In this document: positions 19,403-37,969 of the stretch, piece by piece
How the letters are laid out: each line of letters starts with the position of its first letter
How positions within the stretch are numbered: the first letter of the stretch is position 1
DNA from: an uncultured Monoglobus sp.
Lineage (GTDB): Bacteria > Bacillota > Clostridia > Monoglobales > Monoglobaceae
NCBI GenBank assembly: GCA_947585115.1
Contig: CANPWW010000005.1
Span: 1 to 60,430, forward strand
Length of the DNA: 60,430 bases
Direction: 5' to 3'
Notes under the pieces: model-generated
Told to the model about the DNA's origin: nothing
Seen by the model: only the letters and a program-made list of their open reading frames with translations
Databases searched by the model: none
Program-made: the position numbers and the translations under genes

Positions 19403-19669
19403 AAAAGAAAAAATAAAAAAATTTTGAATTTTTTTAAAAATTCGGGAACTTTTTTGCCACGGCAGTCGTCATATATAGTGAATGGCTGTTATATGATAGA
19501 CTTTGGGTTTGTTCCGGCGGCGGTTTGTCCGCCGCGGAACCGACCCGGAACATAATTTTTATAGCGGCCGAAAAGCAACTACTGATTAAAACGTTATTTG
19601 ATCAGCGGTTACAAAAAGGGTCGTTTTTTGTTTTGTAATAAAAATTATTTGAAAGAGGTGTTTTGGAAA
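19395..19669. other. Intergenic leader region of the large SLH gene
   Basis: The stretch starts with A/T tracts including the palindrome GAATTTTTTTAAAAATTC (about 19425-19442), the breakpoint of the MNT remnant. Further on is a strong hairpin GTTCCGGCGGCGG/CCGCCGCGGAAC (about 19513-19543) and ACTGATTAAAACGTTATTTGATCAG (about 19580-19604). No gene is seen. A promoter probably lies near TATATAGT/TATGAT at 19472-19498 but no good -35 is visible. Confidence 0.4.
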
Positions 19670-22552: not shown

Positions 22553-22606
22553 TAGGGGCGGATATCATCCGCCCGTCCTATTCGCTAATCACTACGTTTA
22601 TATAAA
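22553..22606. repeat. Intergenic repeat, GTAGGGGCGGAT...ATCCGCCC plus AATCACTACG tract
   Basis: The palindrome GGGCGGATATCATCCGCCC is followed by CTATTCGCTAATCACTACGTTTATATA. On the minus strand the ACGTAGTGATTAGCGAATAG tract starts right after the TAA stop of the ECF fusion gene. Confidence 0.65.
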
Positions 22607-25021
22607 CGAATTTTTTTCTTTTAGAAGAAGGCCGTATTTTTTCTTTACTCTGTCGAGTTTGCTCAGCATGGGCTTTGCCAGCAGGGCAAGGAAGATCACG
22701 GTCGAAAGGCCGTGTATCGCGTCAAAGGGCAGGCCCGTCAGGTAGCACGCGGCGAGGGCCGCGCCGTTTATCTCGCTGCCGGCCATGATAAGCGACGCCG
22801 GGTTCATTATCCCGCCGTACACGATCACCGTCGTCAGAAACCCGAACACGCACACCGGAACGGGCGTTTTGGGCAGCGCCTCTTTTTTATACATAAATCC
22901 GGCCAGCAGTCCGACCGCGCCCATCGTCAGCATCTGCCAGGGCGTCCACGGTCCCTGACCCACGAACATGTTTGACACGAACGCGGTTATCACGCCGATC
23001 ATAAAACCCCGCTGGCTCCCGAGCGCCATGCCCGCGATTATGATTATCGCCAGCGTTGGCTTGAACTGCGGCACCATGTAAAACGCGACTCTGCCGACCA
23101 CCGCCAGCGCGCACAGCACCGATATCGTCACAAGCTCGCGCGCTTTGGGCTTTCGCCCCTCGAACATGATGACAAACGGCAGTATCGCCAGAATGATAAG
23201 CGCCGCGCTGATGTAGTAATACGGTCTGCTCGGGATATATTTTGTTCCTAAAAATATCACAAGCGGCATCAGCAGCACCGAGAGTATCGAAAAGAAAACC
23301 GAGCCTTTGGCCGCGCCGTCCGACATGGTGCCGCTTTTTATCCGCTCCATTTTTTCGGTATCGAGCGGCTGCGTTTTTTTCGGCGCCTTGGGCTTCGCGT
23401 CAGTCGGCGCGGGGGAGCCGCCTATGGCGTATATCACGTCGTCGGCCGTGATGGCGTCGTCTATGATATGCCTCGAAATGCGGTTGGCCGCGGTGGTGTA
23501 GAAATTATTGCCCGAGAAGAACGCGCGGGGCTCGTCCTTTGATATTATCTCGCCGTCGAACAAAAACGCGCAGTTGTCGGCGTAGGACGCGCAGAACTCA
23601 ATGTCGTGGGAAACCATGATTATCGAGATGCCGCGGAGCTTGAGGCTCAGCAGTATGCCCGCCAGCTTTTTCTTAAAGTGGGCGTCGAGGCCCTTTGTTG
23701 GCTCGTCCAGCAGCAGTATTCTCGGCCGCCTCAGCAGCACCTTCGCCAGAGCCGCGCGCTGCTGCTCGCCACCCGACAGGTCGTAGGGGTGCATATAAAG
23801 AAGATCGTTTAGGTCGCACAGCTTTATCACGCTGTGGAGATAGCTGTCGTCCTTGAGCGACACGCCCTGCATCAGATCGTCGGCCACGGTGTCTTTCTCG
23901 AATATGGTGGTGGGATCCTGCGGCAGCAGGCACACGCGGTTGCCCATGTCGTAGACCTTGCCGCGGTAGGGCGTGTTGTTGCCCGAGAGTATGGACAAAA
24001 ACGTGGTCTTGCCCACACCGGTGCTGCCCACAAGCGCCTGCCACTCGCCGCTGTGCAGCGTCAGCGATATGTTTTTCAGTATGTCGTTTTCGCGTTTTTC
24101 GTACCTGAACCAGATATTTTTCGCGGCCAGCACGGTCTCGTCGGTCTTATAGCCGAGCTTTTTCACCGGGACGGGCCTTATTTTTTTGTTTTTGACGTAT
24201 TCGCTTATCCACTCCCTGCCCTCGCGGACCGTGAGGGGACAGTTCTTGCCGCTGTCCACCGAGGCGAAAATGCGCGCCGGGGTCGGCATGGCGAGAAACA
24301 TCTCGCTGCCCTCGTTTCTAAGCTGCATTATAACGTTTCTCGGCTCGTTGTCGGCTATGATCCTGCCGTCCTCCATGACGATCATGCGGTCGGATATCGG
24401 CACTACCTCCTCGAGATTGTGGGCGGATATAAGTATCGCTGTGCCGAACTCAAGATTTATCTTGAGAAGCATCTGCATAAAGTCTCCCGCCGAGATCGGG
24501 TCAAGCTGCGCCGTGGGCTCGTCCAGTATAAGTATTTTCGGCTCAAGCACCATGACCGACGCCAGGCTCAACAGCTGGCGCTGACCGCCCGACAGGGTGG
24601 CCGTGTCGCGGTAGAACCAGGACTGCAGCCCGAAAAAGCTTGCCATTTCCGAGACCCTCAGGCGGATCTCGTCGGTATCGTAACCCAGACTCTCAAGTCC
24701 GAACGCCATCTCGTGCCAGACCTTGTCGGTCACTATCTGACTCTCGGCCTTTTGCATAACAAAGCCGATGTCCGACGCCTGGACCTCGGGCGGGACCTTG
24801 TCAAGCTCCGCACCGCGGAACTTGACCGAGCCCGAGCGGTAGCCGCCGGGCAATAGGCTTGTTTTGAGCTGTTTTAAAAGGCTGGTCTTTCCGCAGCCCG
24901 ATTTTCCGCACAGGGTTATGAACTCTCCGCTGCGTATATCAAAGCTGATATCCCGCAGGGCGAAGCCGTTCCGCCCGTTGGTGTAGGAAAAGTTCAGATC
25001 CTTGATCGAAAATAGTTCCAT
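22598..25021 (-). CDS. ECF transporter fusion: two EcfA ATPases joined to an S component
   Basis: The protein has 807 residues from ATG 25021 (GGAGGATATAAA upstream). ATPase 1: Walker A GKSGCGKT (39-45), signature LSGGQ (144-148), Walker B ILILDEP (about 164-170). ATPase 2: Walker A GSTGVGKT (333-340), signature LSGGE (about 416), Walker B ILLLDEP (about 437). After a linker rich in Lys and Pro (about 540-565) comes a membrane domain (about 575-800) with about eight hydrophobic helices. Its second part (ELVTISVLCALAVVGRVAF, GMALGSQRGFMIGVITAF) looks like an ECF substrate-binding S component. Usually EcfA1, EcfA2 and S are separate; joining all three in one chain is unusual. EcfT overlaps its start by 28 bases. 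The vitamin is not proven; the neighbours point to cobalamin or a related corrinoid. Confidence 0.85.
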   Translation of the reverse strand: MELFSIKDLNFSYTNGRNGFALRDISFDIRSGEFITLCGKSGCGKTSLLKQLKTSLLPGGYRSGSVKFRGAELDKVPPEVQASDIGFVMQKAESQIVTDKVWHEMAFGLESLGYDTDEIRLRVSEMASFFGLQSWFYRDTATLSGGQRQLLSLASVMVLEPKILILDEPTAQLDPISAGDFMQMLLKINLEFGTAILISAHNLEEVVPISDRMIVMEDGRIIADNEPRNVIMQLRNEGSEMFLAMPTPARIFASVDSGKNCPLTVREGREWISEYVKNKKIRPVPVKKLGYKTDETVLAAKNIWFRYEKRENDILKNISLTLHSGEWQALVGSTGVGKTTFLSILSGNNTPYRGKVYDMGNRVCLLPQDPTTIFEKDTVADDLMQGVSLKDDSYLHSVIKLCDLNDLLYMHPYDLSGGEQQRAALAKVLLRRPRILLLDEPTKGLDAHFKKKLAGILLSLKLRGISIIMVSHDIEFCASYADNCAFLFDGEIISKDEPRAFFSGNNFYTTAANRISRHIIDDAITADDVIYAIGGSPAPTDAKPKAPKKTQPLDTEKMERIKSGTMSDGAAKGSVFFSILSVLLMPLVIFLGTKYIPSRPYYYISAALIILAILPFVIMFEGRKPKARELVTISVLCALAVVGRVAFYMVPQFKPTLAIIIIAGMALGSQRGFMIGVITAFVSNMFVGQGPWTPWQMLTMGAVGLLAGFMYKKEALPKTPVPVCVFGFLTTVIVYGGIMNPASLIMAGSEINGAALAACYLTGLPFDAIHGLSTVIFLALLAKPMLSKLDRVKKKYGLLLKEKNSFI

Positions 25022-25881
25022 TTTATATCCTCCGTAAGGTTGATTATCATCGGGGTCACGCACAGCAGGGCGTAGCATATATATCCGTATATCGAGATCG
25101 GCATGACGTTCAGCTCATAGTAGGGATAGTACGAAATTTTTGCGCAGCCCGTTATCGTCAGAAAAATCTGCGCGCCGATCAAAATTATCAGCGCGGCAAG
25201 CACAACGCCGTCCCTTGAGTAAAATCGGTACCGGGAAAACGCCGTCCTGCCCTTTAAGCCGTAGCCGCGGGCGTTCATCGAGTCGGCGGTGATTATCGAG
25301 TTCTCAAGCGACCAAGTGAGCATTATCGAAAACACATTCATGCCGCGCCTGATTTTTGAGAACAGCCCGTTTTTGCCGTCCGCCTTTCTGAGGCTGCTCT
25401 GAGCGGTCGCCACGCTTTGGTGCTGCCTGCGCAGCATGGGTATAAAGCGGAGCACCATCGAGAGTATCAGAGACAGCGAGGGGATTATCCGACCGAACAG
25501 ATAGATAAACTTGTCCGACGTGATAACGCGGTTAAAGCAGAAGAACCAAAGAATAACGTCGGCCAGCAGCGCCGCGGCGGTCATGCCGTATACAATCGAC
25601 TCGAGCGTTATCGGGTTGCCGGTCGGCAGATAGCACAGGATAGTCATTCCGTTGTGGTTGAACGCGACGTTCACCAGCGCGGCGAAAAGCGCGATCGGCA
25701 GGATCATCAAAAAGCTGAATTTCAGGGATTTTCTGCCGTCCAGATATAGCGAGTATATCAGCGCCGCCGCCAGCGAAATCAGCACGAGAGGCGGACTCAT
25801 ATAGACAGCGGAAAAAATTATCACCGCCGCGAAATATATGAAGTTGATCAGCGGATGGAACCGCGAGAACTCGTCGCGCAT
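24994..25881 (-). CDS. ecfT: ECF transporter transmembrane component T
   Basis: The product has 295 residues with five to six hydrophobic segments and the EcfT coupling motif near SMNARGYGLKGR (about 208-219), where Ala-Arg-Gly helices contact the ATPases. It couples ATP hydrolysis to toppling of the S component. The 3' end overlaps the start of the EcfA-EcfA-S fusion gene by 28 bases, so the two subunits are made in step; with them a complete ECF transporter is encoded. AAAAAGGAGCG precedes ATG 25881. The lipoprotein gene lies 24 bases upstream on the same transcript. Confidence 0.85.
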   Translation of the reverse strand: MRDEFSRFHPLINFIYFAAVIIFSAVYMSPPLVLISLAAALIYSLYLDGRKSLKFSFLMILPIALFAALVNVAFNHNGMTILCYLPTGNPITLESIVYGMTAAALLADVILWFFCFNRVITSDKFIYLFGRIIPSLSLILSMVLRFIPMLRRQHQSVATAQSSLRKADGKNGLFSKIRRGMNVFSIMLTWSLENSIITADSMNARGYGLKGRTAFSRYRFYSRDGVVLAALIILIGAQIFLTITGCAKISYYPYYELNVMPISIYGYICYALLCVTPMIINLTEDIKWNYFRSRI

Positions 25882-25905: not shown

Positions 25906-26688
25906 TTACAGGTCTATATCATTGCCAAGATCAAGTGTGTAGTACCAGCGCACATCGTCGCCGGGGTTCACGGGCGTTTTGTCGCAGCCGACGCTCGGCC
26001 TCTCGCCGTTCACGAAGTAGACCCAGCCCGAGTTTGAGCCGCAGTCGAACTCATACAGCGAGTTTATGCCCTCGACGTATTTTGAGCCGAAGCCCGCCGA
26101 CGAGGAAAACTCCATCGGTATGCCGCCGCTCCGCGTCACCCGCGCCAGTATGTCAAACACGCTGTCGCCGCCCGATATCTCGACGTTTCCCGAGAATATG
26201 ACGCCGCTCCGAGGCAGCGCGTCCCTCAGTTTTTCGGGCAGGTTCGGGGAGGTCAGCGCCTTTGAGCAGTCGATCAGAAAGGAGCAGGTGTTCTGCGTAT
26301 CTTCGGGTCTTGGCTGCTCGGGTGCGTTTTGATTCGGCGGAGCCGCGTTTTCCTCGGCCCGGCTCTCTTCCGAATTACCGCCCGCCGCGGAACCGTCGTC
26401 CGCCGTGCCGCCGCTCTCGGCCGCGCTTTCACGCCGTGGCAGTTCTTCCTCGCCGCCTTCGGTCGGCTGCGCCGCGCCTTTTGCGGGAGCCGCGGTCTCA
26501 GCCGCCGCTGCCGAGGGAAAAGTGTTTTTTTGAGCCGCAAATCGGCTTTCGGTTCGGTTTCCGTTCGGCTCTCCGTCGGGTGACGGCGCCGAGAAAGCGC
26601 CGCTCACCGTCTCGCCGCCATCGCTGCCGCAGCCGCACAGACCGAGGCACAGCAGGGCGCTCAAAAAAATTATTATCGCTTTTTTCAT
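25906..26688 (-). CDS. DUF4430 lipoprotein (transcobalamin C-terminal-like beta domain)
   Basis: The protein has 260 residues. A lipoprotein signal peptide ends at LGLCGC (Cys about 20), so it is fixed on the outer face of the membrane. Residues about 22-130 are low complexity (Ala, Glu, Gly, Pro, Ser). The C-terminal part (about 140-255) matches DUF4430, the domain related to the beta domain of transcobalamin and intrinsic factor: GDSVFDILARVTRSGG, then YEFDCGSNSGWVYFVNGERPSVG and a PGDDVRWYYTL end. In the animal proteins this domain closes over the corrin ring from one side. It lies between ecfT (24 bases) and an alpha/alpha-barrel protein (3 bases), so it is likely the substrate-delivery part of the ECF system. 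Substrate is inferred. Confidence 0.8.
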   Translation of the reverse strand: MKKAIIIFLSALLCLGLCGCGSDGGETVSGAFSAPSPDGEPNGNRTESRFAAQKNTFPSAAAAETAAPAKGAAQPTEGGEEELPRRESAAESGGTADDGSAAGGNSEESRAEENAAPPNQNAPEQPRPEDTQNTCSFLIDCSKALTSPNLPEKLRDALPRSGVIFSGNVEISGGDSVFDILARVTRSGGIPMEFSSSAGFGSKYVEGINSLYEFDCGSNSGWVYFVNGERPSVGCDKTPVNPGDDVRWYYTLDLGNDIDL

Positions 26689-26691
26689 AGG

Positions 26692-27648
26692 TTATTCTCT
26701 CACGCTCTCAAGATACATTTGATTCGCCTCGAACCACAGCGCGTCATAGATCAGCGTCCGCTGATCCGCAAGCGGCTCGGTCAGAGCCAGCAGCGCCTGT
26801 TCGGCCGCCATTTGGTCGGGCGCGCCGCCCTCGATAACGTGGAGATACGCGCCGCCGCCTGAGCGAAAACGCTCGAGAGCCGTTTTTGGGGTGTTTCCGT
26901 TTTTGGTGAAAAACCTGTTGTCGTCGGGCAGGCCGTACCGCCTCATGGCGATCATGACCTGCGCCGTGGTCTCGCAGCAGGCCGCCTCGCCCGTGGTCTC
27001 GGAAAAGCTTCCGTCTCCGTTCTGGACCGACGAGAGATACAAAAACGCGCGGTTTATCGCGCGGTCTATTTCAACGCCGCCGCCATACAGACAGAGCGCG
27101 GAAATTGCCATCGCGGTCACGTCGGCGTCCGGCTTATCGTTGGACAGACCGAAAGAGCCGTCCTTGTTTTGGCGGCTTAAAATATAGTCAATGTATCTGT
27201 CGCGAGTGCTTGTGTCAGTATCGCCGAGGGCCGATTTTGCCTCGAGCGCGAATATCGCGCCGTTGATGCCCTGAGCCGTGACGCTGTCATAGTCGTTTAC
27301 GCGGGAGAGCAAATCATATTTGTCGCTCTCGCCCAGTTCACTCAGCGCCAGAGCGATACGCGAATACTCGGTGTAGCGTCTGCCCAGGTCGCCTCCGCTC
27401 TCGCTCATGCGCGCGTCCAGATTTCTGAGGTACGCGTCAAAATAAGCGCCGTCCGCGGCATTCGCGCGGTGCAAACCGATAACGGCCCACTCGCCGCCCA
27501 CCGAGCCCGGAGACGGGTCGGGCGCCGCCGACATTATATACGTCGCGGTCTCCGCGGTCTCGGCCCCGTCCTCGGCGCAGAACGCCGAAACAGGCCCCGC
27601 CGCCAGAACCGCCGCCAAAAACAAAATAAATATCCGATTGATCCTCAT
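26692..27648 (-). CDS. Secreted alpha/alpha-barrel protein of the prenyltransferase/transcobalamin fold
   Basis: The protein has 318 residues with an N-terminal signal segment (IFILFLAAVLAAGPVSAFCA). Residues about 65-300 form an alpha/alpha barrel with the repeat motifs SRQNKDGSFGLSNDKPDAD and SVQNGDGSFSETTGEA, shared by squalene cyclase/prenyltransferase repeats and by the alpha domain of intrinsic factor and transcobalamin. The catalytic DxDD of cyclases is absent, which favours a binding role. It is the first gene of the operon that continues with the DUF4430 lipoprotein, ecfT and the ATPase-S fusion, under the promoter at 27678-27706. Alpha and beta halves encoded side by side imply a two-chain cobalamin binder; this is inference. 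Confidence 0.75.
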   Translation of the reverse strand: MRINRIFILFLAAVLAAGPVSAFCAEDGAETAETATYIMSAAPDPSPGSVGGEWAVIGLHRANAADGAYFDAYLRNLDARMSESGGDLGRRYTEYSRIALALSELGESDKYDLLSRVNDYDSVTAQGINGAIFALEAKSALGDTDTSTRDRYIDYILSRQNKDGSFGLSNDKPDADVTAMAISALCLYGGGVEIDRAINRAFLYLSSVQNGDGSFSETTGEAACCETTAQVMIAMRRYGLPDDNRFFTKNGNTPKTALERFRSGGGAYLHVIEGGAPDQMAAEQALLALTEPLADQRTLIYDALWFEANQMYLESVRE

Positions 27649-27677: not shown

Positions 27678-27706
27678 ATCTTAACATTTTTGTCGGGTGA
27701 TGTCAA
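27678..27706 (-). promoter_or_regulatory. Promoter of the ECF operon
   Basis: On the minus strand TTGACA (27701-27706), 17 bases, TAAGAT (27678-27683). The leader to ATG 27648 is only about 20 nt, so no riboswitch can fit here. Confidence 0.72.
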
Positions 27707-27882: not shown

Positions 27883-28992
27883 TTATTTGGTAATTTCCGT
27901 TTTTTCGCCGGAGGGCTCGTCGTATTGGAAATATCTGTCGGATTCGGCGTGCTCGGCGAAGAACAGGCGTCCGCCGCGGCTCAGGAAATTATAGGCGTAC
28001 TGCGAGCCCTGCTCCAGCTCAGTCAGGCGCGACTCGTTGGAGCCGCTTATCCGCGCGCTGTATATTCCGCGGTCCGCCTGATAATATATTCTTCCGTCGA
28101 TCACGTCAAAACGGTTGCTCATGCACAAAAACGCGTAGAGATCAATGTTCCCGTTTCCGTCCTTCGGCGAGCGGTACAGTCTGTAGCTTTGGGTCGCGTC
28201 GTCAAACGCCGAGAAGAACACGTAGTTTTTATCGACAACTATGCTGTCGGTGGGAACCGAAAAGCTCAGGATCTGCGTTTGATTTTCCCCGTTATAGTCC
28301 ATTCTGAAAAGCTCCGTTCCGCTGACCGAGCTTTCAATATTGTCATAATAAATATGGTCTTTGTCGTAACCGAATATGACATACTCGCCCTCGATCGCCT
28401 TTTTTGTCTCTCCGGCGCCGATGTCATATCTGTAAATCCCGTTGTTGAGGCCGCCGTCCGCCTCGGTGTAGTACGCCGAGTATATACCGCCGTTCACATA
28501 GGCCGGAGAGCCTATCGGCGACACAAACTCTGTTATCGAGATATCGTTGTTGCCGTCTGTTCCGCAGCGGCGCAGCTCGGGCGCGTACTCCTCGTCGCCC
28601 TCGGTGACGTAATACACGTCCTCGCCCAGGATCGCGAACAGCTCGGAGTCGATAGGAATTATCTCCGCGCCTTCAATATCCATCCTGCGCGACACCGACT
28701 CGGAGGTATACAAGACGCCGTCCTTCTCGGCGATATAAGTGAAGGGAACTATCTCGTCCTCAGCCGGCGAAGGATCAGCTCCGAGACCACTTCCCTCGCT
28801 ATCAGTATCGGCGGGCTCATCGCTATCCTCGATATCCGCAACAATCTTTTGATCTTCTTTTTCATTTTCGGATCCTCCCCCCGAGCCGCGGGAAACAATG
28901 ATCCCGTTTCTGTAGCCGTAGACGCCGAGGCAGGTCAGCGCCGCGGCGAAAACCAGCGTCAGCGCCAGGATAATAACATGCGATCGTTTCAT
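27883..28992 (-). CDS. Membrane-anchored DUF5050-type beta-propeller protein
   Basis: The protein has 369 residues from ATG 28992 (GGAGTGATACT upstream). One N-terminal membrane helix (about 5-27) anchors it; an acidic stretch (about 38-75) follows. The body consists of repeated strands of the kind DGVLYTSESVSRR, NGGIYSAYYTEADGG, DKDHIYYDN, VVDKNYVFFSAFDD, DGRIYYQADRGIYSARISG, typical of DUF5050/low-density-lipoprotein-receptor-like propellers. Ligand unknown. It starts four bases after the gtrA-like gene, so both form an operon from the promoter at 29491-29519. Confidence 0.72.
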   Translation of the reverse strand: MKRSHVIILALTLVFAAALTCLGVYGYRNGIIVSRGSGGGSENEKEDQKIVADIEDSDEPADTDSEGSGLGADPSPAEDEIVPFTYIAEKDGVLYTSESVSRRMDIEGAEIIPIDSELFAILGEDVYYVTEGDEEYAPELRRCGTDGNNDISITEFVSPIGSPAYVNGGIYSAYYTEADGGLNNGIYRYDIGAGETKKAIEGEYVIFGYDKDHIYYDNIESSVSGTELFRMDYNGENQTQILSFSVPTDSIVVDKNYVFFSAFDDATQSYRLYRSPKDGNGNIDLYAFLCMSNRFDVIDGRIYYQADRGIYSARISGSNESRLTELEQGSQYAYNFLSRGGRLFFAEHAESDRYFQYDEPSGEKTEITK

Positions 28993-28996
28993 AGTA

Positions 28997-29461
28997 TCAC
29001 TCCGATTTTTTCTTGAATATCCACAGCTTGCTGAACACGTAGTTAAGCACCACGATAACAAACTGGGCGATTATGTTCATAATAAGCTCCGGATAGTGCA
29101 GTCCGTTTACCGTCACCGACATGAATATCATCTCAAATATGAGGGTCGAGAGACGCGCGGCGAAAAACTGCACCATTTCTTTGAATATCGCGCCTGCGCC
29201 GCGGACCTTGCTTTTGAACACAAAAATCCGGTTCGTGACATAGGCGAACAATATCGCGACGATGTTTTTCAAAACCAGACACACGTTCTGAAGCGCCAGA
29301 TTATTGGCGAGCCTCAGGTTATCGTTACCCGACACAGCCGCTATCTTGTCGAACATAAAGACAAACAGCGCGTACAGCGCGATCGACACAATGGTTGTCA
29401 GCACGCCGAAAACCAAGTACAGAATAATTTCCTCATACTTTTTGTAAAGTTTCTTGATCAT
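28997..29461 (-). CDS. GtrA-family membrane protein
   Basis: The protein has 154 residues with four membrane helices and the GtrA signatures LVFGVLTTIVSIALYALFV (about 17-35) and the end NYVFSKLWIFK. Family members help move lipid-linked sugars across the membrane for glycosylation of surface polymers. The usual glycosyltransferase partner is not in this window. GAGGAG precedes ATG 29461. The DUF5050 gene follows after four bases. Confidence 0.85.
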   Translation of the reverse strand: MIKKLYKKYEEIILYLVFGVLTTIVSIALYALFVFMFDKIAAVSGNDNLRLANNLALQNVCLVLKNIVAILFAYVTNRIFVFKSKVRGAGAIFKEMVQFFAARLSTLIFEMIFMSVTVNGLHYPELIMNIIAQFVIVVLNYVFSKLWIFKKKSE

Positions 29462-29674: not shown

Positions 29675-30055
29675 ATGAAGATAATGGAATCGGCGGAAAA
29701 CTATCTTGAAACAATATTGATACTGAAAAACAAAAGCGGCAGCGTCCGCTCGATTGATATTGTCGCGGAGACCGGATTCACCAAGCCGAGCATCAGCCGC
29801 GCCGTGAAGCATCTGCGCGAGAACGGATACATAACCGTCGGCGAGCACGGACATATCGATCTGACCGAGTCCGGCAGAGAGATCGCCGAAAAAATCTACG
29901 AGCGCCACAGACTTCTCAGCAAATATCTTATGAAAATCGGCGTTTCGGAAGAGACCGCGCTGGAGGACGCGTGCCGTATCGAGCATGTTATCAGTGAGGA
30001 AAGTTTTTCGCGCCTCAAGGAATTTGTCAAAAAATATGAAGGATCGGTCTCATAG
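29675..30055 (+). CDS. DtxR/MntR-family metal-dependent repressor
   Basis: The regulator has 126 residues, with a winged HTH (about 10-65; VRSIDIVAETGFTKPSISRAVKHLRENGYI) and a helical dimerisation/metal domain (about 66-125). It ends without the SH3-like third domain, like MntR. Metal ligands seen: Glu in NYLETI, His in YERHRLL, and the Cys-x-x-Glu-His set of DACRIEHVIS; this Cys is typical of DtxR/IdeR, whereas MntR has Glu there. The first ligand position (Met in DtxR, Asp in MntR) is Asn here. It should repress metal-uptake genes when Fe or Mn is plentiful. GGGGTG lies 8 bases before the chosen ATG. A cobalamin riboswitch begins only 38 bases after its stop. Confidence 0.82.
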   Translation: MKIMESAENYLETILILKNKSGSVRSIDIVAETGFTKPSISRAVKHLRENGYITVGEHGHIDLTESGREIAEKIYERHRLLSKYLMKIGVSEETALEDACRIEHVISEESFSRLKEFVKKYEGSVS

Positions 30056-30093
30056 CTCAGACAAAGCTTTTTGGAGCCGAGATAAATTGAATA

Positions 30094-30261
30094 TGATTAA
30101 ACGGTGCGGGCGCCGAGGCGTCCGATAATAGGGAATGCGGGTGAAAATCCCGAGCAGTCCTGCTGCCGTGATGGGGAGCGCAGCGGCAACGCGCCACTGA
30201 TTTTATATCGGGAAGGCGCCGCGGCGCGATGAACCTTAGCCGGAAGACCTGCCTTTAATCA
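30094..30261 (+). ncRNA. Cobalamin (B12) riboswitch
   Basis: The element shows the conserved cores: GGGAATGCGGGTGAAAATCC, CAGTCCTGCTGCCGTGATGG, GCGCCACTG, GGGAAGGCG and GATGAACCTTAGCCGGAAGA, followed by CCTGCC. TGATTAAA (30094-30101) and TTTAATCA (30254-30261) form the closing P1 stem. The order and spacing fit a class I cobalamin aptamer binding adenosylcobalamin or a related corrinoid. With the terminator at 30335-30360 it should switch the following SLH gene off when corrinoid is abundant. No good promoter lies directly in front of it; the start may be inside the 3' end of the DtxR-like gene. Confidence 0.95.
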
Positions 30262-30334
30262 GCCTATTATAATTCACAGGGTCTTGAATTGGGCAATCGC
30301 ACCAAGCCGTTTTTCGGTCCGCGGTGTTTTTGTG

Positions 30335-30360
30335 CCTGCGCCCTGCGCGGGTATTTTTTT
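30335..30360 (+). terminator. Terminator (expression platform) of the cobalamin riboswitch
   Basis: CCTGCGC (30335-30341) and GCGCGGG (30345-30351) pair around a CCT loop, followed by TATTTTTTT (30352-30360). The ribosome site AAAGGAGG of the regulated gene comes next, so the switch acts on transcription. Confidence 0.82.
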
Positions 30361-30381
30361 ATAATTAAAGGAGGACTTTTT

Positions 30382-33294
30382 ATGACACCAAAGAAAACGA
30401 CAACAAAATTCGCGGCTATCCTGCTGGCGGTCATCATGGCAATGCAGACATTTTGCCTCGGCGCCGCGGCTGACGAGAGTGACACAAAGACGGTCACCGT
30501 TATGATCTCGGACGAGGCCGTGATCATGCCGCCGACCGAGATCTCGGTCAGCCCCGACGAGGCGGCGAAGTACGGCTATCCCGACGACCTGTCGACCGTG
30601 AGCGTTTTTGACGCGATGACAGCCGCCCATAAATATCTTTTGGGCGGAGACTTCACGGCGGACACCGCGAAAAATTACCTCAACATCACCGAGTCCGGAT
30701 TTGTGGACCTGATACTCGGCGACAACCGAGCGTCGGGCTTTCTCACGGACGGCATACAGCCGAATGACGGCGTGCTGAACCCGCTTTACGGCTCATACAG
30801 CGCGTACACGGCGGACAAGGCATACCTAAACGGCGGAGAGACCCTTGACATATTCTTTTATCAGGACCAAGATTTCTACAGCGATTATTACTCCGCCTTT
30901 GACAGAACGGAAATAACCGCCTCTCCCGGAGAAGAAATAACCCTTGATCTCAGCGGATATATGACATTTTATGGCGCGTACCCCGCGGACATGATCGAGG
31001 AATCCACCGAGCCGCTGGCGGACATCGCGGTTCTCAGCGGAACCGACGAAAACAACCTGAGCGCGAGCGGCATAACGACGGACGAGAACGGCACGTTCTC
31101 GATCAGCTTCGATGAGCCCGGCACGTATTATATTTCGGCCGAAAGCGCATCGGACGGTTTCACGTATTTTATACCGCCTTGGTGCCGCGTCACCGTTACA
31201 GACAACCGTGCTACAGCAGAGCCTTCGGAAGCTCCGTCGGCCGAGCCCTCGAGCGAACCTTCGGCAGAGCCCTCGAAAGCTCCCTCCGAGGATATCGAGA
31301 CGAAGGACCGGATCCCCGTTCTGCTTGACAACATTTCAAGATCATACGCGGACACGAGCGACCCGTGGGCGCTGTTTGACATGGCGCGCGGCGGATACGA
31401 AAAAACTCTTTCGGACAAGGCCGCATCGCTCCAAAAGCTGACCGACGAGGCGTACGCCGCCGACACGATAGGCGCGGTCTCCAAATACGGCTTGGCTATA
31501 GGCGCCCTTGGCGGAAATCTCCAAAAGCTCACCACATCGGACGGCGGACAATTTGATCTGATCGACAGGCTCTCGTCCTTTGAGCCCTCGGATATATCCT
31601 ATATAACCGACGCGGTTTTCGCGATGACGGTCTACGACTCCGGGAATTACACAGCCGGCGGCAACCTGACGCGCGATGCTCTGCTTGACTACATACTCAC
31701 GAGCCGAAACAGCGACGGCATCTGGGGATACGAGTGGGGCGGACAGAGCTTTCCCGATTATGACTCGACAGCCATGGCGCTGAACGCGCTGGCGAAATAC
31801 TATAGCGCAAGCTCCGCCAAAGCAGCGGGGCTGAGCGATGAGACCTACGGCCAAATAAAGTCCGCCGTTTCGGATATAATCAATATCCTGTCCGCGGCCC
31901 AGAGCGAAAGCGGCACGTTCTACAGCTCGAACACCGACGCGATGGTAGTGATCGGTCTTGCCGCCGTCGGGATCGACCCCTCAAGCGACGCGCGCTTTGT
32001 CAAAGGCGGCAGCGCGGTCGACGGTCTGGCGGGCTACGCGCTGGCTGACAACAGCGGATTCGGATTTTCGGACAACGCCGAGTTTAACGCTCTCGCCACC
32101 GAGCAGAGCTTCCGCGCCCTGATCGCGTACAGCGCGTTTAAAAACGGCGGCGGCAAGCCGTTCAATATTTACACCGACAAAATAACCGCTCCCGGCGGCT
32201 CGGGCGGCGGTTCGGGTTCGGGCGGCGGCTCAGGCTCGGGCGGCTTCGACTCGGGCAAGATAACGGTTTATGTCACGCTGAAGGGCGACACCGTTCACGG
32301 CAGCGGAAAGCACAGCGGCGGCTATCCCACATGGATCGCCGAGACCGCGGCAACCGTGTCAAAGGGCGGCAAGGCCTCTGACGCGGTCAAGGCGGCGCTT
32401 TCGGCGAAAGGCTACACCGCTGACGGCCTCGACAGCGGATATATAAGATCTGTCACCACGCCCGACGGCGTGAAGCTGAGCGAGTTTGACAACGGCAAAA
32501 ACAGCGGCTGGCTGTACACCGTGAACGGCGCCTCGCCCTCGGTAGGCATAGGCTCGTACACCTTAAAAGACGGCGACCGTATTGTGCTGTATTACAGCGA
32601 CGACTACACAAAGGAAAGCGGCTCAAGCGGCGGCTGGTCGGGCGGCGGCTCATTCGGCGGCTCAGCGGCGCAGAGCACCGCGGCTCCGACGCCGACGCAA
32701 GCGCCGACGGAAACTCCTTCTTCCGCTCCTTCCTCCTCCGATTCCGAGGATAAAAACGGCTTTGCGGACGTGCCCGCCGAACATTGGGCGCATGATTATA
32801 TCATAAAGCTCAGCGGCTGCGGAATTTTGAGCGGCTACCCCGACGGCAGCTTTCTGCCCGACGGCAATATCACCCGCGCCGAGCTGACCGCCGTCCTCTG
32901 CCGCGCCTTCGGAAACGGCGGAACCGCCGAATATCAAGACGGCTTGTTCTCGGATGTGACCCCGGGCGACTGGCACTCGGGCTATATCGCCCAGGCAGCC
33001 GCGGCGGGATTTGTGAACGGTTATCCCGACGGCAGTTTCCTGCCCGACAGCGACATCACTCGCGAGGACATATGCGTGATATTGGCGAGGATATGCGCCG
33101 CTCTCGGAAAATCCGAAGGCGAGCGGTCTGATGAGCCTTTCGCCGACCAAAGCGAGATCTCCGACTACGCGGCAGACGGCGTTCAAAAAATGCGGAGCAT
33201 GGGAATAGTCGGCGGCAGGGAAAACAATATGTTTGAGCCGAAAGCTCCCGCGACCCGCGCCGAGGCCGCCAAAATGATCTGCGGCCTGCTATAA
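30382..33294 (+). CDS. SLH-anchored intrinsic-factor-like protein (alpha/alpha barrel plus DUF4430) under B12 control
   Basis: The protein has 970 residues from ATG 30382 (AAAGGAGG upstream). Domains in order: signal peptide (1-29, AAA-DE); a first beta region (about 36-165) with VFDAMTAAHKYLL and a GGETLDIFFY end like DUF4430; an Ig-like domain (about 177-275); a PSAEPS linker; an alpha/alpha barrel (about 308-595) with SRNSDGIWGYEWGG and QSESGTFYSS repeats of the prenyltransferase/transcobalamin type; a Gly-Ser linker (604-621); a DUF4430 domain (about 625-745; NSGWLYTVNGASPSVG); and three SLH repeats (793-970). The order alpha barrel then beta domain is that of mammalian intrinsic factor and transcobalamin. 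With the cobalamin riboswitch in front, a surface corrinoid-capture role is strongly suggested, though not proven. Partners: the ECF operon on the other strand. Confidence 0.85.
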   Translation: MTPKKTTTKFAAILLAVIMAMQTFCLGAAADESDTKTVTVMISDEAVIMPPTEISVSPDEAAKYGYPDDLSTVSVFDAMTAAHKYLLGGDFTADTAKNYLNITESGFVDLILGDNRASGFLTDGIQPNDGVLNPLYGSYSAYTADKAYLNGGETLDIFFYQDQDFYSDYYSAFDRTEITASPGEEITLDLSGYMTFYGAYPADMIEESTEPLADIAVLSGTDENNLSASGITTDENGTFSISFDEPGTYYISAESASDGFTYFIPPWCRVTVTDNRATAEPSEAPSAEPSSEPSAEPSKAPSEDIETKDRIPVLLDNISRSYADTSDPWALFDMARGGYEKTLSDKAASLQKLTDEAYAADTIGAVSKYGLAIGALGGNLQKLTTSDGGQFDLIDRLSSFEPSDISYITDAVFAMTVYDSGNYTAGGNLTRDALLDYILTSRNSDGIWGYEWGGQSFPDYDSTAMALNALAKYYSASSAKAAGLSDETYGQIKSAVSDIINILSAAQSESGTFYSSNTDAMVVIGLAAVGIDPSSDARFVKGGSAVDGLAGYALADNSGFGFSDNAEFNALATEQSFRALIAYSAFKNGGGKPFNIYTDKITAPGGSGGGSGSGGGSGSGGFDSGKITVYVTLKGDTVHGSGKHSGGYPTWIAETAATVSKGGKASDAVKAALSAKGYTADGLDSGYIRSVTTPDGVKLSEFDNGKNSGWLYTVNGASPSVGIGSYTLKDGDRIVLYYSDDYTKESGSSGGWSGGGSFGGSAAQSTAAPTPTQAPTETPSSAPSSSDSEDKNGFADVPAEHWAHDYIIKLSGCGILSGYPDGSFLPDGNITRAELTAVLCRAFGNGGTAEYQDGLFSDVTPGDWHSGYIAQAAAAGFVNGYPDGSFLPDSDITREDICVILARICAALGKSEGERSDEPFADQSEISDYAADGVQKMRSMGIVGGRENNMFEPKAPATRAEAAKMICGLL

Positions 33295-36045: not shown

Positions 36046-37443
36046 TCAGTTTTCGAATCTGTCGTAATCATTATAATCTATATCGGTCACGGTGGTTCCG
36101 TTTCCCTTTTCGAAATACACCGCGGCATATCCATTGCCGTTATTTTTAAGATACGCCGTGCCGCGCATACCGAGATAGGGGAGCATATCAAAACCGCCGA
36201 GATCATAGATCTCTCCGCCGATCATAAAGCGCGAGCCGCTTGTGTTGCTTTCGGCATACACGCCCGCTCCGCCCACGTCGGTCACCTCTCCAACGCGGGT
36301 TATGATGTCGTGGTAGCGGCTGAGTATCGTCTCTTCGCCGTAGCTGTAAACATTGTTTCCGCCGTAGGTGTTCTGCGCCACGACCGGCACATCGAGGGCG
36401 TTGTCCATCAGCACGGCCGCCTCGCCGCGTATCAGCGGTTCCCCGTAATTCTCGCCGAGGCCGCCGAGCAGCGACAGCCTCGAGGCCTCGCGCAGAAATC
36501 CCTCGGGATAGCCGCCGCGGTCAAGCGCCGACGCGGTATATCCCAGCGACGATACCATGATCTTGAGCGCGTCTTGAAGCGTGATATTATCCTCGGGACT
36601 GAAATTTCCGTTCTCGTCGCCGTTCACAACGCCCAGCGAATAGAGCGCGTATATCGCGCCCGTGCCCCAGTAATCGGGAGCGACGTCCGAGAATATCTTC
36701 TTATATCCGCTCGGGTCCACGGTCTCGCCGATAGCCAGCAGCCTTGACACCATCGCGCTGAACTCGGCGCGGGTTATCGTGCCCTCGGGGTTAAACTCGG
36801 TCGCGCTGTAGCCGCTGATGAGGCCCAGGTTCTTGAGCTTGGCGGTGGAGCCGTAATACTCCGTGCCGACGCAGTCGGCGAATCCGATGTCGTCGGCGAC
36901 GCGGCTTTTGAGCTCCACGCTCTCTATGCAGGGCGACCAGGGCGTTCCTCCCACGTTGCCGAAGGTCACTCTGATCTTCGCCGCGTCCTCGGGCAGCTTT
37001 TTAAGGCTGTAGTGAACGGGTATCCACTTGCCCGAAACCGAGTCCTCTGTTATTATCGGATTGAATTTTTTGTAGCTTTCGCCGTCCGAGGAATACTCGA
37101 ATGTGAAGTGGGATATCGTCTCGTTCGGCGCGTAGGCCGTGTGGAACACAAGATAACCGTTTTGCGGCGCGTCGTACTCTATCCACTCCGCCTCGGAGGT
37201 CACTCTTATCAGGTGGGTGTCGTCGCCGCTGAACGCGTACTTGTTTTCCTCGGTGACTATGTCTATCGCCAGTCCCTCGCTGTGGGCGGCCGCCACCGAA
37301 AAGTCCGCCAGATCGTCGAACATGACAAAATCGGACGATGCGCTCTCCTCGTCCGCCGCGATACTGAGCCGCGGAACCAGAAGCAGGGCCGCCAGGACCG
37401 CCGCGGTTATTATTCTTATGTATTTTTTTGATTTAAATCCCAT
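36046..37443 (-). CDS. SLH protein with sugar-binding-like N-terminus (N-terminal part of a split gene)
   Basis: From ATG 37443 (GGGAG 9 bases upstream) the frame codes 465 residues. A signal peptide (ITAAVLAALLLVPRLSIA-AD) is followed by a jelly-roll-like domain (about 30-165; GKWIPVHYSLKKLPEDAAKIRV, then GTPWSPCIESVEL). SLH repeats follow: YGSTAKLKNLGLISGYSATEF..NPEGTITRAEF, WGTGAIYALYSLGVVNGDENG..NFSPEDNITLQDA, and a degenerate third. After about residue 370 a beta region starts and is cut by TGA at 36046-36048. The next gene continues in the same frame. It is placed directly after nrdG and probably belongs to the operon beginning at 40352. Confidence 0.75.
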   Translation of the reverse strand: MGFKSKKYIRIITAAVLAALLLVPRLSIAADEESASSDFVMFDDLADFSVAAAHSEGLAIDIVTEENKYAFSGDDTHLIRVTSEAEWIEYDAPQNGYLVFHTAYAPNETISHFTFEYSSDGESYKKFNPIITEDSVSGKWIPVHYSLKKLPEDAAKIRVTFGNVGGTPWSPCIESVELKSRVADDIGFADCVGTEYYGSTAKLKNLGLISGYSATEFNPEGTITRAEFSAMVSRLLAIGETVDPSGYKKIFSDVAPDYWGTGAIYALYSLGVVNGDENGNFSPEDNITLQDALKIMVSSLGYTASALDRGGYPEGFLREASRLSLLGGLGENYGEPLIRGEAAVLMDNALDVPVVAQNTYGGNNVYSYGEETILSRYHDIITRVGEVTDVGGAGVYAESNTSGSRFMIGGEIYDLGGFDMLPYLGMRGTAYLKNNGNGYAAVYFEKGNGTTVTDIDYNDYDRFEN

Positions 37444-37459
37444 AATATCCATTCTCCCG

Positions 37460-37969
37460 TTATTCAAAAGTATGCACGGTTTTTCCGCCGTCCTTCATGG
37501 TTTTTTTAAGGTCGATCATGCGCTGGTTCCTGCTGCTGCGGAACCTTGTCAAGAGGCTCCGCTCGCTCATTACGAACCTGCCGTCGATCAGCACGTCCGC
37601 AATATTCAAAAGCCGCAGGATATCGCCGTTCTCGCGGCTCATTTCCAAAAGCTGCTCGAAAGTATAGCCCGAGTAGACCGTCACATTTTTGCCGATCTCA
37701 ACTATTTTCTCGCCTAAGTCCGCCAGCGGCCCCGGCTGGCAGAACGGCTCGCCGCCCGAAAACGTTATGCCGCTGAGCAGCGGATTCTTTTTGAACTCAT
37801 TAAATATATTCCCGATGTCCTCATATGTGCCGCCCGAGAAATCGTGGGTCTCGGGGTTGTGACAGCCAGGGCAGTGATGGGGGCAGCCCTGAACGAACAG
37901 CACGTATCTTATGCCATCGCCGTCGGTTATCGACTCGGGGACGATCCCCGCAATTTTAAGCTTACTCAT
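37460..37969 (-). CDS. nrdG: Anaerobic ribonucleotide reductase activating protein
   Basis: This radical SAM enzyme makes the glycyl radical of the class III ribonucleotide reductase NrdD. The 169-residue product has the expected size. It shows CPHHCPGC (about 29-36), the C-x3-C-x2-C ligands of the 4Fe-4S cluster, the SITDGDGIRYVLFVQG lead-in typical of NrdG, and TFSGGEP (about 69-75) for SAM binding. NrdD is not in the window. The gene overlaps the 3' end of the cohesin-SLH-dockerin gene by 8 bases and stops 16 bases before the start of the split SLH gene; an odd place for a housekeeping activase. Confidence 0.92.
   Translation of the reverse strand: MSKLKIAGIVPESITDGDGIRYVLFVQGCPHHCPGCHNPETHDFSGGTYEDIGNIFNEFKKNPLLSGITFSGGEPFCQPGPLADLGEKIVEIGKNVTVYSGYTFEQLLEMSRENGDILRLLNIADVLIDGRFVMSERSLLTRFRSSRNQRMIDLKKTMKDGGKTVHTFE

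What the first reader, a model, noticed from the sequence alone, without database searches (positions are those of the whole stretch)
30094..33294. Cobalamin-riboswitch-controlled, S-layer-anchored intrinsic-factor-like protein
A clear B12 riboswitch with terminator controls a 970-residue protein that joins an alpha/alpha barrel and a DUF4430 domain in the same order as intrinsic factor and transcobalamin, fixed to the cell wall by three SLH repeats. Together with the split pair and ECF fusion only 3 kb away, it suggests a complete capture-and-uptake route for corrinoids on the surface of a Gram-positive gut bacterium, functionally comparable to BtuG/BtuB of Bacteroides but built from unrelated parts. 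I know of no description of such a system.
Basis: partly seen in the sequence, partly recalled or inferred. Interest (0 to 1): 0.88.

Follow-up and report, generated by a model that had tools for sequence, protein, structure and literature searches.

The report
Wall-anchored bacterial vitamin B12 catcher
A gut bacterium that appears unable to make vitamin B12 carries, under a B12-sensing RNA switch, a cell-wall protein built from the same two kinds of domain as the human B12 carriers intrinsic factor and transcobalamin, beside a matching membrane importer; it is most likely how this group of bacteria catches B12, an idea first predicted in outline in 2007 and, as far as I could find, still untested.

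Summary
The genome's only detected cobalamin riboswitch (30084-30270, 107.6 bits, with terminator) precedes a 970-aa secreted protein: DUF4430-like beta-grasp domain, Ig-like domain, alpha/alpha toroid, DUF4430, three SLH repeats. A divergent operon 2.4 kb away encodes a secreted toroid, a DUF4430 lipoprotein, EcfT and an EcfA-A-S fusion; its S domain is closest, among solved structures, to the B12 S-component CbrT (E 2e-22). In related loci picked by protein similarity, 57 of 69 with an intact 5' side have a B12 riboswitch in front of the toroid/DUF4430 genes (control ORFs 4 of 588). The 90%-complete genome has MetH but no hit for MetE, CobS, CobA, PduO or the BtuF family. So this is very likely a B12 capture and import route. 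Added here: riboswitch control, SLH anchoring, CbrT-like S domain, auxotroph context. In this genome the ECF operon has no riboswitch.

The parts
30084..30270 (+). Cobalamin riboswitch aptamer (RF00174), complete model 1-189
   Evidence: cmscan 107.6 bits, E 5.3e-26; only copy found in the genome
30332..30364 (+). Intrinsic terminator (10-pair stem 30332-30354, then U run) = likely expression platform
   Evidence: comparable hairpin by eye in same-genus relatives (sequences printed)
30382..33294 (+). SLH-anchored toroid-DUF4430 protein, 970 aa, with signal peptide (approx. residues 1-31, by inspection)
   Evidence: ORF from ATG with AAGGAGGA upstream; domains
30475..30981 (+). N-terminal domain (residues ~32-200), divergent DUF4430-like beta-grasp
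   Evidence: hhalign of A5 with DUF4430 set A7: probability 94.9%, E 4.7e-8; Pfam DUF4430 in 2 of 18 members at E<=0.1, not in the window member; shallower comparison only 22%
30982..31197 (+). Ig-like / CarboxypepD_reg-like domain (residues ~201-272), followed by a Pro/Ser/Glu linker
   Evidence: Pfam hits below cut-off; PDB profile hits to Ig-like repeats
31315..32175 (+). alpha/alpha toroid domain (residues ~312-598)
   Evidence: profile-profile match to the toroid gene 26692-27648: E 2.9e-37, 7.2e-46; PDB profile hits to squalene-hopene cyclase toroids
32254..32616 (+). DUF4430 beta-grasp domain (residues ~625-745; Pfam core 667-739)
   Evidence: Pfam E 1.9e-14; profile A4 reaches human transcobalamin-2, E 2.9e-4; DUF4430-only profile A7 only E 0.11
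32752..33291 (+). three SLH repeats (cell-wall polymer anchor)
   Evidence: Pfam E 1.2e-38, 3 stretches; CsaB-type pyruvyl transferase in genome, 251 bits vs cut-off 213, within a 768-aa open frame
26692..27648 (-). secreted stand-alone alpha/alpha toroid protein, 318 aa
   Evidence: Pfam Prenyltrans E 6e-9; homologues within riboswitch-led clusters
25906..26688 (-). DUF4430 lipoprotein, 260 aa (signal ending L-C-G-C, by inspection)
   Evidence: Pfam DUF4430 E 8.1e-18; profile match to the DUF4430 of the SLH protein 99.4%
24994..25881 (-). EcfT (CbiQ-like transmembrane component), 295 aa
   Evidence: Pfam CbiQ E 1.3e-5, just over cut-off; gene order conserved
22598..25078 (-). EcfA-EcfA-S fusion (two ATPases + S-component domain); listed ATG at 25078, real start more likely near 25021 (MELFSIKD)
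   Evidence: Pfam ABC_tran x2, ECF_trnsprt; S domain 22601-23281 profile hits CbrT 6fnp_A E 2e-22; start compared with L042 homologue
27678..27706 (-). sigma70-like promoter before the toroid-DUF4430-ECF operon; no riboswitch found there
   Evidence: TTGACA-17-TAAGAT with TG, one found against 0.4 expected; no second RF00174 hit

Best explanation
This is a B12 (corrinoid) capture-and-uptake system of a Monoglobus species that appears unable to make B12. When intracellular cobalamin is high, the riboswitch folds so that the terminator at 30332 stops transcription; when it is low, the SLH protein is made, secreted and fixed to pyruvylated wall polymer through its three SLH repeats. Its toroid and DUF4430 domains, in the order found in transcobalamin and intrinsic factor, close on a corrinoid at the surface. 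The vitamin then passes to a membrane-near split version of the same pair (secreted toroid plus DUF4430 lipoprotein) and on to the CbrT-like S domain of the EcfT/EcfA-A-S transporter, supplying MetH. Shown by computation: riboswitch, terminator-like hairpin, domain order, SLH anchor, conserved gene clusters, CbrT-likeness, tested gene content. Inferred: corrinoid binding, direction of riboswitch control, hand-over, and pairing of the split proteins.
For: Riboswitch and terminator-like hairpin. In 80 loci picked by similarity to the protein (the best 80 of 556), 79 carry a toroid/DUF4430 gene group, 69 have an untruncated 5' side and 57 of these 69 have a riboswitch within -150..900 nt upstream (55 from Rfam hits overlapped by a profile hit, 2 by profile only: L101, L134); control 4 of 588 other ORFs of 150 aa or more and 0 of 23 SLH-only ORFs (older profile). 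25 of 32 untruncated ECF-containing groups are riboswitch-led. Reverse direction: 30 of 40 riboswitch regions of relatives examined lead toroid/DUF4430/ECF genes. S domain: CbrT 2e-22, RibU 1.2e-4 (6FNP = ECF-CbrT). Genome: MetH found; no hit for MetE (52), CobS (47), CobA/BtuR (48), PduO (39) or Peripla_BP_2/BtuF family. CsaB present. The toroid/DUF4430 profile reaches transcobalamin-2.
Against: The ECF operon in this genome has its own promoter-like site and no riboswitch was found there. 12 of 69 intact loci show no riboswitch directly upstream, and in 32 of the 57 riboswitch-led loci no ECF gene is in the same group. Intrinsic factor itself is reached only at E 0.69; PF01122 (Cobalamin_bind) is not matched by the window protein and by only 1 of 30 relatives at E 0.0018; the DUF4430-only profile reaches transcobalamin only at E 0.11; the best solved relatives of the toroid are squalene-hopene cyclases. 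The genome is a 90%-complete draft, so absences are weak. No adenosyltransferase was found (CobA, PduO; EutT not tested) although this riboswitch class usually senses adenosylcobalamin (recalled).
Confidence: 0.8

Rival explanations
1. The wall protein binds corrinoids but mainly stores, shields or competes for them (or takes them from host carriers) and does not pass them to the neighbouring ECF transporter, which works alone.
For: In the window the two transcription units are separate and only the wall protein is riboswitch-led; in 32 of the 57 riboswitch-led loci no ECF gene lies in the same detected gene group (25 groups have one).
Against: In a good part of the relatives one riboswitch-led run encodes toroid/DUF4430 proteins and ECF parts together (8 of 40 riboswitch regions by the strict run rule; 25 groups).
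Confidence: 0.1
2. The ligand is another tetrapyrrole or small molecule (for example heme or a corrinoid precursor only), and the B12 riboswitch regulates it indirectly.
For: [quoted passage not shown] another ECF system takes up heme (PMC7299338, listing only).
Against: S domain is closest to CbrT, not to other solved S-components; the riboswitch link is frequent (57 of 69); the genome has a B12-dependent MetH but no hit for the other tested B12 routes.
Confidence: 0.07
3. The toroid is an enzyme-like or structural module (squalene-cyclase or adhesin type) and not a ligand-binding half.
For: Best solved-structure hits of the toroid are squalene-hopene cyclases, E 4e-12 and 2e-14.
Against: The DXDD acid motif of cyclases (recalled) is not seen by inspection: DYDS in the window protein, DADV in the toroid gene, and variable in relatives (alignments); frequent company of DUF4430 and ECF genes under a B12 riboswitch.
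Confidence: 0.03

Closest known systems
Transcobalamin-like SLBB clade surface proteins with alpha/alpha toroid, CbiO/CbiQ operons (Burroughs et al. 2007, PMC1796856; abstract, section 7 part 1 of 2 and passages seen)
   Same: Toroid fused to the beta-grasp domain, secreted, second paralogous SLBB protein, CbiO/CbiQ-type transporter genes, hosts usually lacking key B12 synthesis enzymes, predicted to scavenge B12
   Different: That paper names Gram-positive anchor motifs and Ig, FIVAR, fasciclin and beta-propeller fusions; a search of its main text finds no 'riboswitch', 'SLH', 'S-layer' or 'ECF'. Here: B12 riboswitch, SLH anchor, CbrT-like S domain fused to two ATPases, and a second N-terminal beta-grasp-like domain
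Animal intrinsic factor / transcobalamin / haptocorrin
   Same: Toroid followed by beta-grasp domain; relationship to transcobalamin-2 at profile level
   Different: Wall-anchored, extra N-terminal and SLH domains, not matched by the PF01122 model in this protein, B12 binding not shown
ECF-CbrT (Santos et al. 2018, PMC5997447; passages seen) and the CbrUVT transporters listed by Rodionov et al. 2019 (PMC6593275; passages seen)
   Same: ECF transporter with a CbrT-related S domain (E 2e-22)
   Different: Dedicated module with EcfA-A-S in one chain, accompanied by extracytoplasmic toroid/DUF4430 proteins; the passages seen on L. delbrueckii CbrT mention no such partner
BtuG / BtuH / BtuJ surface lipoproteins with BtuB of Bacteroides (Wexler 2018 PMC6143338, Putnam 2022 PMC8941943, FEBS Open Bio 2026 PMC13398666; passages seen)
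   Same: Riboswitch-controlled accessory surface proteins that catch B12 before the transporter
   Different: Other folds (BtuG beta-propeller recalled; BtuJ/DUF4465 jellyroll), outer-membrane BtuB and BtuFCD instead of wall anchoring and ECF

Membership tests
Cobalamin riboswitch RF00174 | Covariance-model score above gathering cut-off, full-length | tested here: met
   107.6 bits vs 31.5, model 1-189
Cobalamin riboswitch RF00174 | 5' leader position with an expression platform | tested here: met
   terminator-like hairpin between aptamer and ATG
Cobalamin riboswitch RF00174 | Binds a cobalamin and changes expression | not testable with these tools
   needs in-line probing or reporter assay
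Burroughs 2007 transcobalamin-like SLBB surface scavengers | SLBB/DUF4430 domain with alpha/alpha toroid in one secreted protein | tested here: met
   signal peptide by inspection
Burroughs 2007 transcobalamin-like SLBB surface scavengers | Operon or neighbourhood with CbiO/CbiQ-type genes and a second SLBB protein | tested here: met
   neighbouring operon in the window; same cluster in part of the relatives
Burroughs 2007 transcobalamin-like SLBB surface scavengers | Host lacks B12 synthesis | tested here: inconclusive
   no CobS, CobA, PduO hit in a 90%-complete draft; other pathway genes not tested
Intrinsic factor / transcobalamin family | N-terminal toroid followed by C-terminal beta-grasp domain | tested here: met
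Intrinsic factor / transcobalamin family | Match to PF01122 Eukaryotic cobalamin-binding protein | tested here: not met
   no hit in the window protein; 1 of 30 members at E 0.0018
Intrinsic factor / transcobalamin family | Sequence relationship to solved family members | tested here: inconclusive
   profile hit to transcobalamin-2 at E 2.9e-4, intrinsic factor 0.69; DUF4430-only profile 0.11
Intrinsic factor / transcobalamin family | One cobalamin held between the two domains | not testable with these tools
   structure prediction switched off
ECF-CbrT B12 transporter | S-component related to CbrT more than to other solved S-components | tested here: met
   6fnp_A 2e-22; RibU 1.2e-4; 4hzu_S 0.02. 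NCBIfam gives only sub-threshold folate/riboflavin-family hits
ECF-CbrT B12 transporter | Cobalamin transport | not testable with these tools
   needs uptake assay
SLH-anchored S-layer-associated proteins | Three SLH repeats and CsaB pyruvylation enzyme in the genome | tested here: met
BtuG/BtuH/BtuJ (Bacteroides) | Shares their domain families | tested here: not met
   Pfam scan of the 970-aa protein shows only DUF4430 and SLH above cut-off, plus weak Ig-like, DUF4198 and PT matches

The most novel reading that the evidence does not exclude
An ECF transporter that works with extracytoplasmic binding proteins: a wall-anchored intrinsic-factor-like receptor relays cobalamin to a split transcobalamin, a heterodimer of a secreted toroid and a beta-grasp lipoprotein that closes on the vitamin and docks on the CbrT-like S domain. 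ECF importers are held to do without soluble binding proteins (recalled), so this would be a mixed mechanism, and a living relative of the bacterial source from which Burroughs et al. proposed animals took their B12 carriers.
Probability: 0.35. Interest if true: 0.82.

Novelty: new variant of a known kind. Interest (0 to 1): 0.62.

Why it matters
Rodionov et al. 2019 found BtuFCD(B) or CbrT transporters in nearly half of the auxotrophic variants of gut bacteria and say that identifying B12 transport systems in numerous gut genomes 'remains an open problem' (passages); Putnam et al. [quoted passage not shown] The riboswitch statistics given here make a specific family of wall proteins and a specific ECF module directly testable as a missing route in Clostridia and Paenibacillus relatives, and suggest how such bacteria could compete with each other, with Bacteroides and possibly with the host for B12. 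The wall protein also offers a bacterial counterpart for studying how intrinsic factor and transcobalamin arose.

Tried and rejected
Pfam alone does not find the toroid in the window protein. A regex for the B12 box gave hits in only a few loci because the pattern was too narrow; dropped. The first nhmmer riboswitch profile was contaminated with reverse-complement sequences, since some loci are held in contig orientation; the count 54 of 69 used it; rebuilt with oriented sequences, which gives 57 of 69 (56 with nhmmer E<0.01, 53 with E<1e-5). The DNA alignment mixes orientations in the same way and was not used. A DUF5050 protein and a GtrA protein next to the cluster were considered as parts and rejected: in the loci held, homologues turned up only in same-genus ones. 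Cyclase activity held unlikely because the DXDD motif (recalled) is not seen. Rodionov et al. 2009 (J Bacteriol) is not held and was not read. Literature searches for prior descriptions: (all 10 allowed; open-licence PMC papers only; one search listed 10 of 50 papers). Zhang et al. 2009 (PMC2667541, passages) gave nothing on this system.
Full report
WHAT IS THERE. The window lies in a genome of the genus whose nearest named records are uncultured Monoglobus species: the same-genus genome G002 has its riboswitch on a contig of 33983 bases, the length and riboswitch position of the contig titled Monoglobus sp.. Rfam finds one riboswitch in the whole window, RF00174 at 30084-30270 with 107.6 bits, and it is the only one found in the 2.34-Mb, 90.4%-complete assembly. 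A 10-pair hairpin with a U run follows at 30332-30364 (by pattern alone such sites are expected by chance, 2 found against 1.7 in shuffles), then AAGGAGGA and an ATG at 30382. By eye, same-genus relatives have a comparable hairpin and T run at this place, in L041 and L042 with altered stem sequence (oriented sequences printed; not folded).

THE PROTEIN. The 970-aa product has a signal peptide (by inspection), one DUF4430 domain (E 1.9e-14) and three SLH repeats (E 1.2e-38). Pfam does not see the barrel in it, but a profile of its residues 312-595 matches the profile of the neighbouring Prenyltrans-family toroid with probability 99.9%, and the larger alignment A4 does so at E 7e-46. A further N-terminal domain matches the DUF4430 profile with 95% probability (only 22% with the shallower alignment; Pfam sees DUF4430 in 2 of 18 members at E up to 0.1, not in the window member). 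It is followed by an Ig-like domain (weak hits). The order is therefore signal, beta-grasp-like, Ig-like, linker, toroid, Gly/Ser linker, DUF4430, linker, SLH x3. The profile of toroid + DUF4430 (30 sequences) reaches squalene-hopene cyclases (4e-12) through the toroid and human transcobalamin-2 (2.9e-4) through the DUF4430 part; intrinsic factor only at 0.69. A DUF4430-only profile reaches transcobalamin at 0.11. PF01122 is matched by 1 of 30 members and not by the window protein. So it has the architecture of intrinsic factor; membership in the animal family is not established.

THE NEIGHBOURING OPERON. On the minus strand from 27648 to 22598 lie a secreted toroid, a DUF4430 lipoprotein, EcfT and an EcfA-A-S fusion. 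The S domain, as a profile of 31 sequences, matches 6fnp_A at 2e-22, then riboflavin RibU at 1.2e-4 and 4hzu_S at 0.02; 6FNP is ECF-CbrT, a characterised B12 transporter (PMC5997447, passages). NCBIfam offers only sub-threshold folate and riboflavin S-component hits. Before this operon lies a sigma70-like site at 27706-27678 (one found, 0.4 expected) and no riboswitch was found, so in this genome only the wall protein appears under direct B12 control.

IS THE RIBOSWITCH LINK MORE THAN CHANCE? Of these 80, 79 contain a toroid/DUF4430 gene group by my profiles (L112 does not), and 69 have at least one group that starts 300 nt or more from the locus end. Riboswitches of the 80 genomes came from two whole-genome searches (37 of 40 and 39 of 40 genomes with a match). 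Placed by coordinates and required to overlap a riboswitch-profile hit in the locus, or profile-only with E<1e-5, riboswitches stand between -150 and 900 nt upstream of the group in 57 of 69 loci: 55 by both methods, L101 and L134 by profile only (L134 a 52-nt hit); 56 with nhmmer E<0.01, 53 with E<1e-5. An earlier, partly mis-oriented profile gave 54. The same test on 588 other ORFs of 150 aa or more in these loci gives 4, of which L113_07 and L131_10 lie immediately in front of a toroid/DUF4430 group; SLH-only ORFs give 0 of 23 (earlier profile). Of 32 untruncated groups containing ECF genes, 25 are riboswitch-led. The twelve loci without one are L076, L082, L103, L106, L113, L117, L137, L139, L143, L146, L148 and L152. 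In the other direction, one search found 60 riboswitch matches in 60 genomes (the own genome and 59 relatives); I took regions around 40 of the 59 matches outside the own genome. Of these 40, 30 lead toroid/DUF4430/ECF genes, 8 of them with both kinds in one strict run; three (L061, L063, L066) look like BtuFCD runs (L061 checked), and seven lead other, short or cut-off ORFs (L051, L054, L056, L062, L065, L070, L071). Several genomes occur in both sets (for example L073/L033 and L083/L036), so the two directions are not independent.

THE HOST'S NEED FOR B12. The only B12-binding-domain hit above cut-off is MetH (794 aa from its listed start, beside MetF); a second hit, below cut-off, lies in a MiaB-like radical-SAM ORF (name by inspection). 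No hit was found for MetE, CobS (47), CobA/BtuR (48), PduO-type adenosyltransferase (39) or the Peripla_BP_2 family of BtuF (49); each search rang in 7 to 13 of 14 control genomes. The draft is 90% complete, so single absences are weak, but together they describe a B12-dependent auxotroph without the classical importer. The anaerobic ribonucleotide reductase activator NrdG lies at 37460-37969, in line with MetH as a main consumer; a B12-dependent ribonucleotide reductase was not searched for. SLH anchoring is plausible because a CsaB-type protein is present.

MECHANISM. Most likely, low intracellular cobalamin lets transcription pass the terminator; the wall protein catches corrinoids between toroid and DUF4430; the split toroid/DUF4430 pair receives them near the membrane; the CbrT-like S domain with EcfT and the fused ATPases imports them. 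The parts and their genetic linkage are shown; binding, direction of control and hand-over are inferred. A tension remains: this riboswitch class usually senses adenosylcobalamin (recalled), yet no CobA- or PduO-type adenosyltransferase was found; either the switch senses another cobalamin, or imported adenosylcobalamin is sensed, or EutT (not tested) or a missing contig supplies it.

WHAT WAS KNOWN. Burroughs et al. 2007 (PMC1796856; abstract, section 7 part 1 of 2 and passages seen) describe the beta-grasp domain of transcobalamin in many low-GC Gram-positive surface proteins, fused to alpha/alpha toroids on either side, in operons with CbiO-like ATPases and CbiQ-like proteins and often a second paralogous protein, in hosts that usually lack key B12 synthesis enzymes, and propose B12 scavenging. 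A search of its main text finds no 'riboswitch', 'SLH', 'S-layer' or 'ECF'. My ten literature searches in open-licence PMC papers brought up no experimental test of such a bacterial system in their listings; subscription papers were not searchable. Rodionov et al. 2019 (PMC6593275, passages) list CbrUVT and BtuBCDF as B12 transporters and call the rest an open problem; Putnam et al. [quoted passage not shown]

VERDICT. A real, well-conserved, riboswitch-controlled system whose B12 function is very likely; a wall-anchored, ECF-coupled variant of a kind predicted in 2007. Interest 0.62, because it makes an open question testable; the most novel reading (ECF transport assisted by external binding proteins) is not excluded.

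Noticed in passing
29675-30055 +: DtxR/MntR-like metal-dependent regulator (126 aa), ending 28 nt before the aptamer; also found in front of or near the cluster in several same-genus loci, in L044/L077 and in L121. Its role next to a B12 system is unexplained.
   Followed up: partly
27883-29025 -: DUF5050 protein (propeller fold recalled) directly upstream of the toroid gene on the same strand; in the loci held, homologues only in same-genus ones.
   Followed up: partly
L052:5282-9835, L053, L050:7174-11982: Some same-genus genomes have B12 riboswitches leading 1500-1640-aa proteins; the two scanned (L052, L050) have GLUG repeats and DUF4430, and L050 SLH: another riboswitch-controlled surface protein type. 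The window genome has only one riboswitch hit.
   Followed up: partly
whole genome G000: No CobA- or PduO-type adenosyltransferase hit although a cobalamin riboswitch is present; which cobalamin the switch senses is open.
   Followed up: partly
L049, L064, L116, L127, L130, L144, L147, L152: Relatives shuffle the same modules: proteins of 1300-3100 aa, several with more than one toroid or DUF4430; elsewhere toroid genes with their own SLH repeats (L083) and ATPases and S domain fused or separate.
   Followed up: partly
L068:11677-12473 (riboswitch-oriented coordinates): In one relative the riboswitch-led gene is followed by integrase/transposase-like ORFs (names by inspection): possibly an interrupted cluster.
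   Followed up: no
L062 RS 9903-10100 (riboswitch-oriented coordinates): A B12 riboswitch hit lies upstream of a UvrD/PcrA-like helicase ORF and a ligase-like ORF (names by inspection), an odd target.
   Followed up: no
19598-22489 +, 36046-37467 -, 37962-40352 -: Further SLH proteins around the cluster; the first confirmed by Pfam, the other two by inspection and by SLH matches of their counterparts in relatives.
   Followed up: no
37460-37969 -: NrdG, activator of the oxygen-sensitive B12-independent ribonucleotide reductase (E 2.4e-39).
   Followed up: yes
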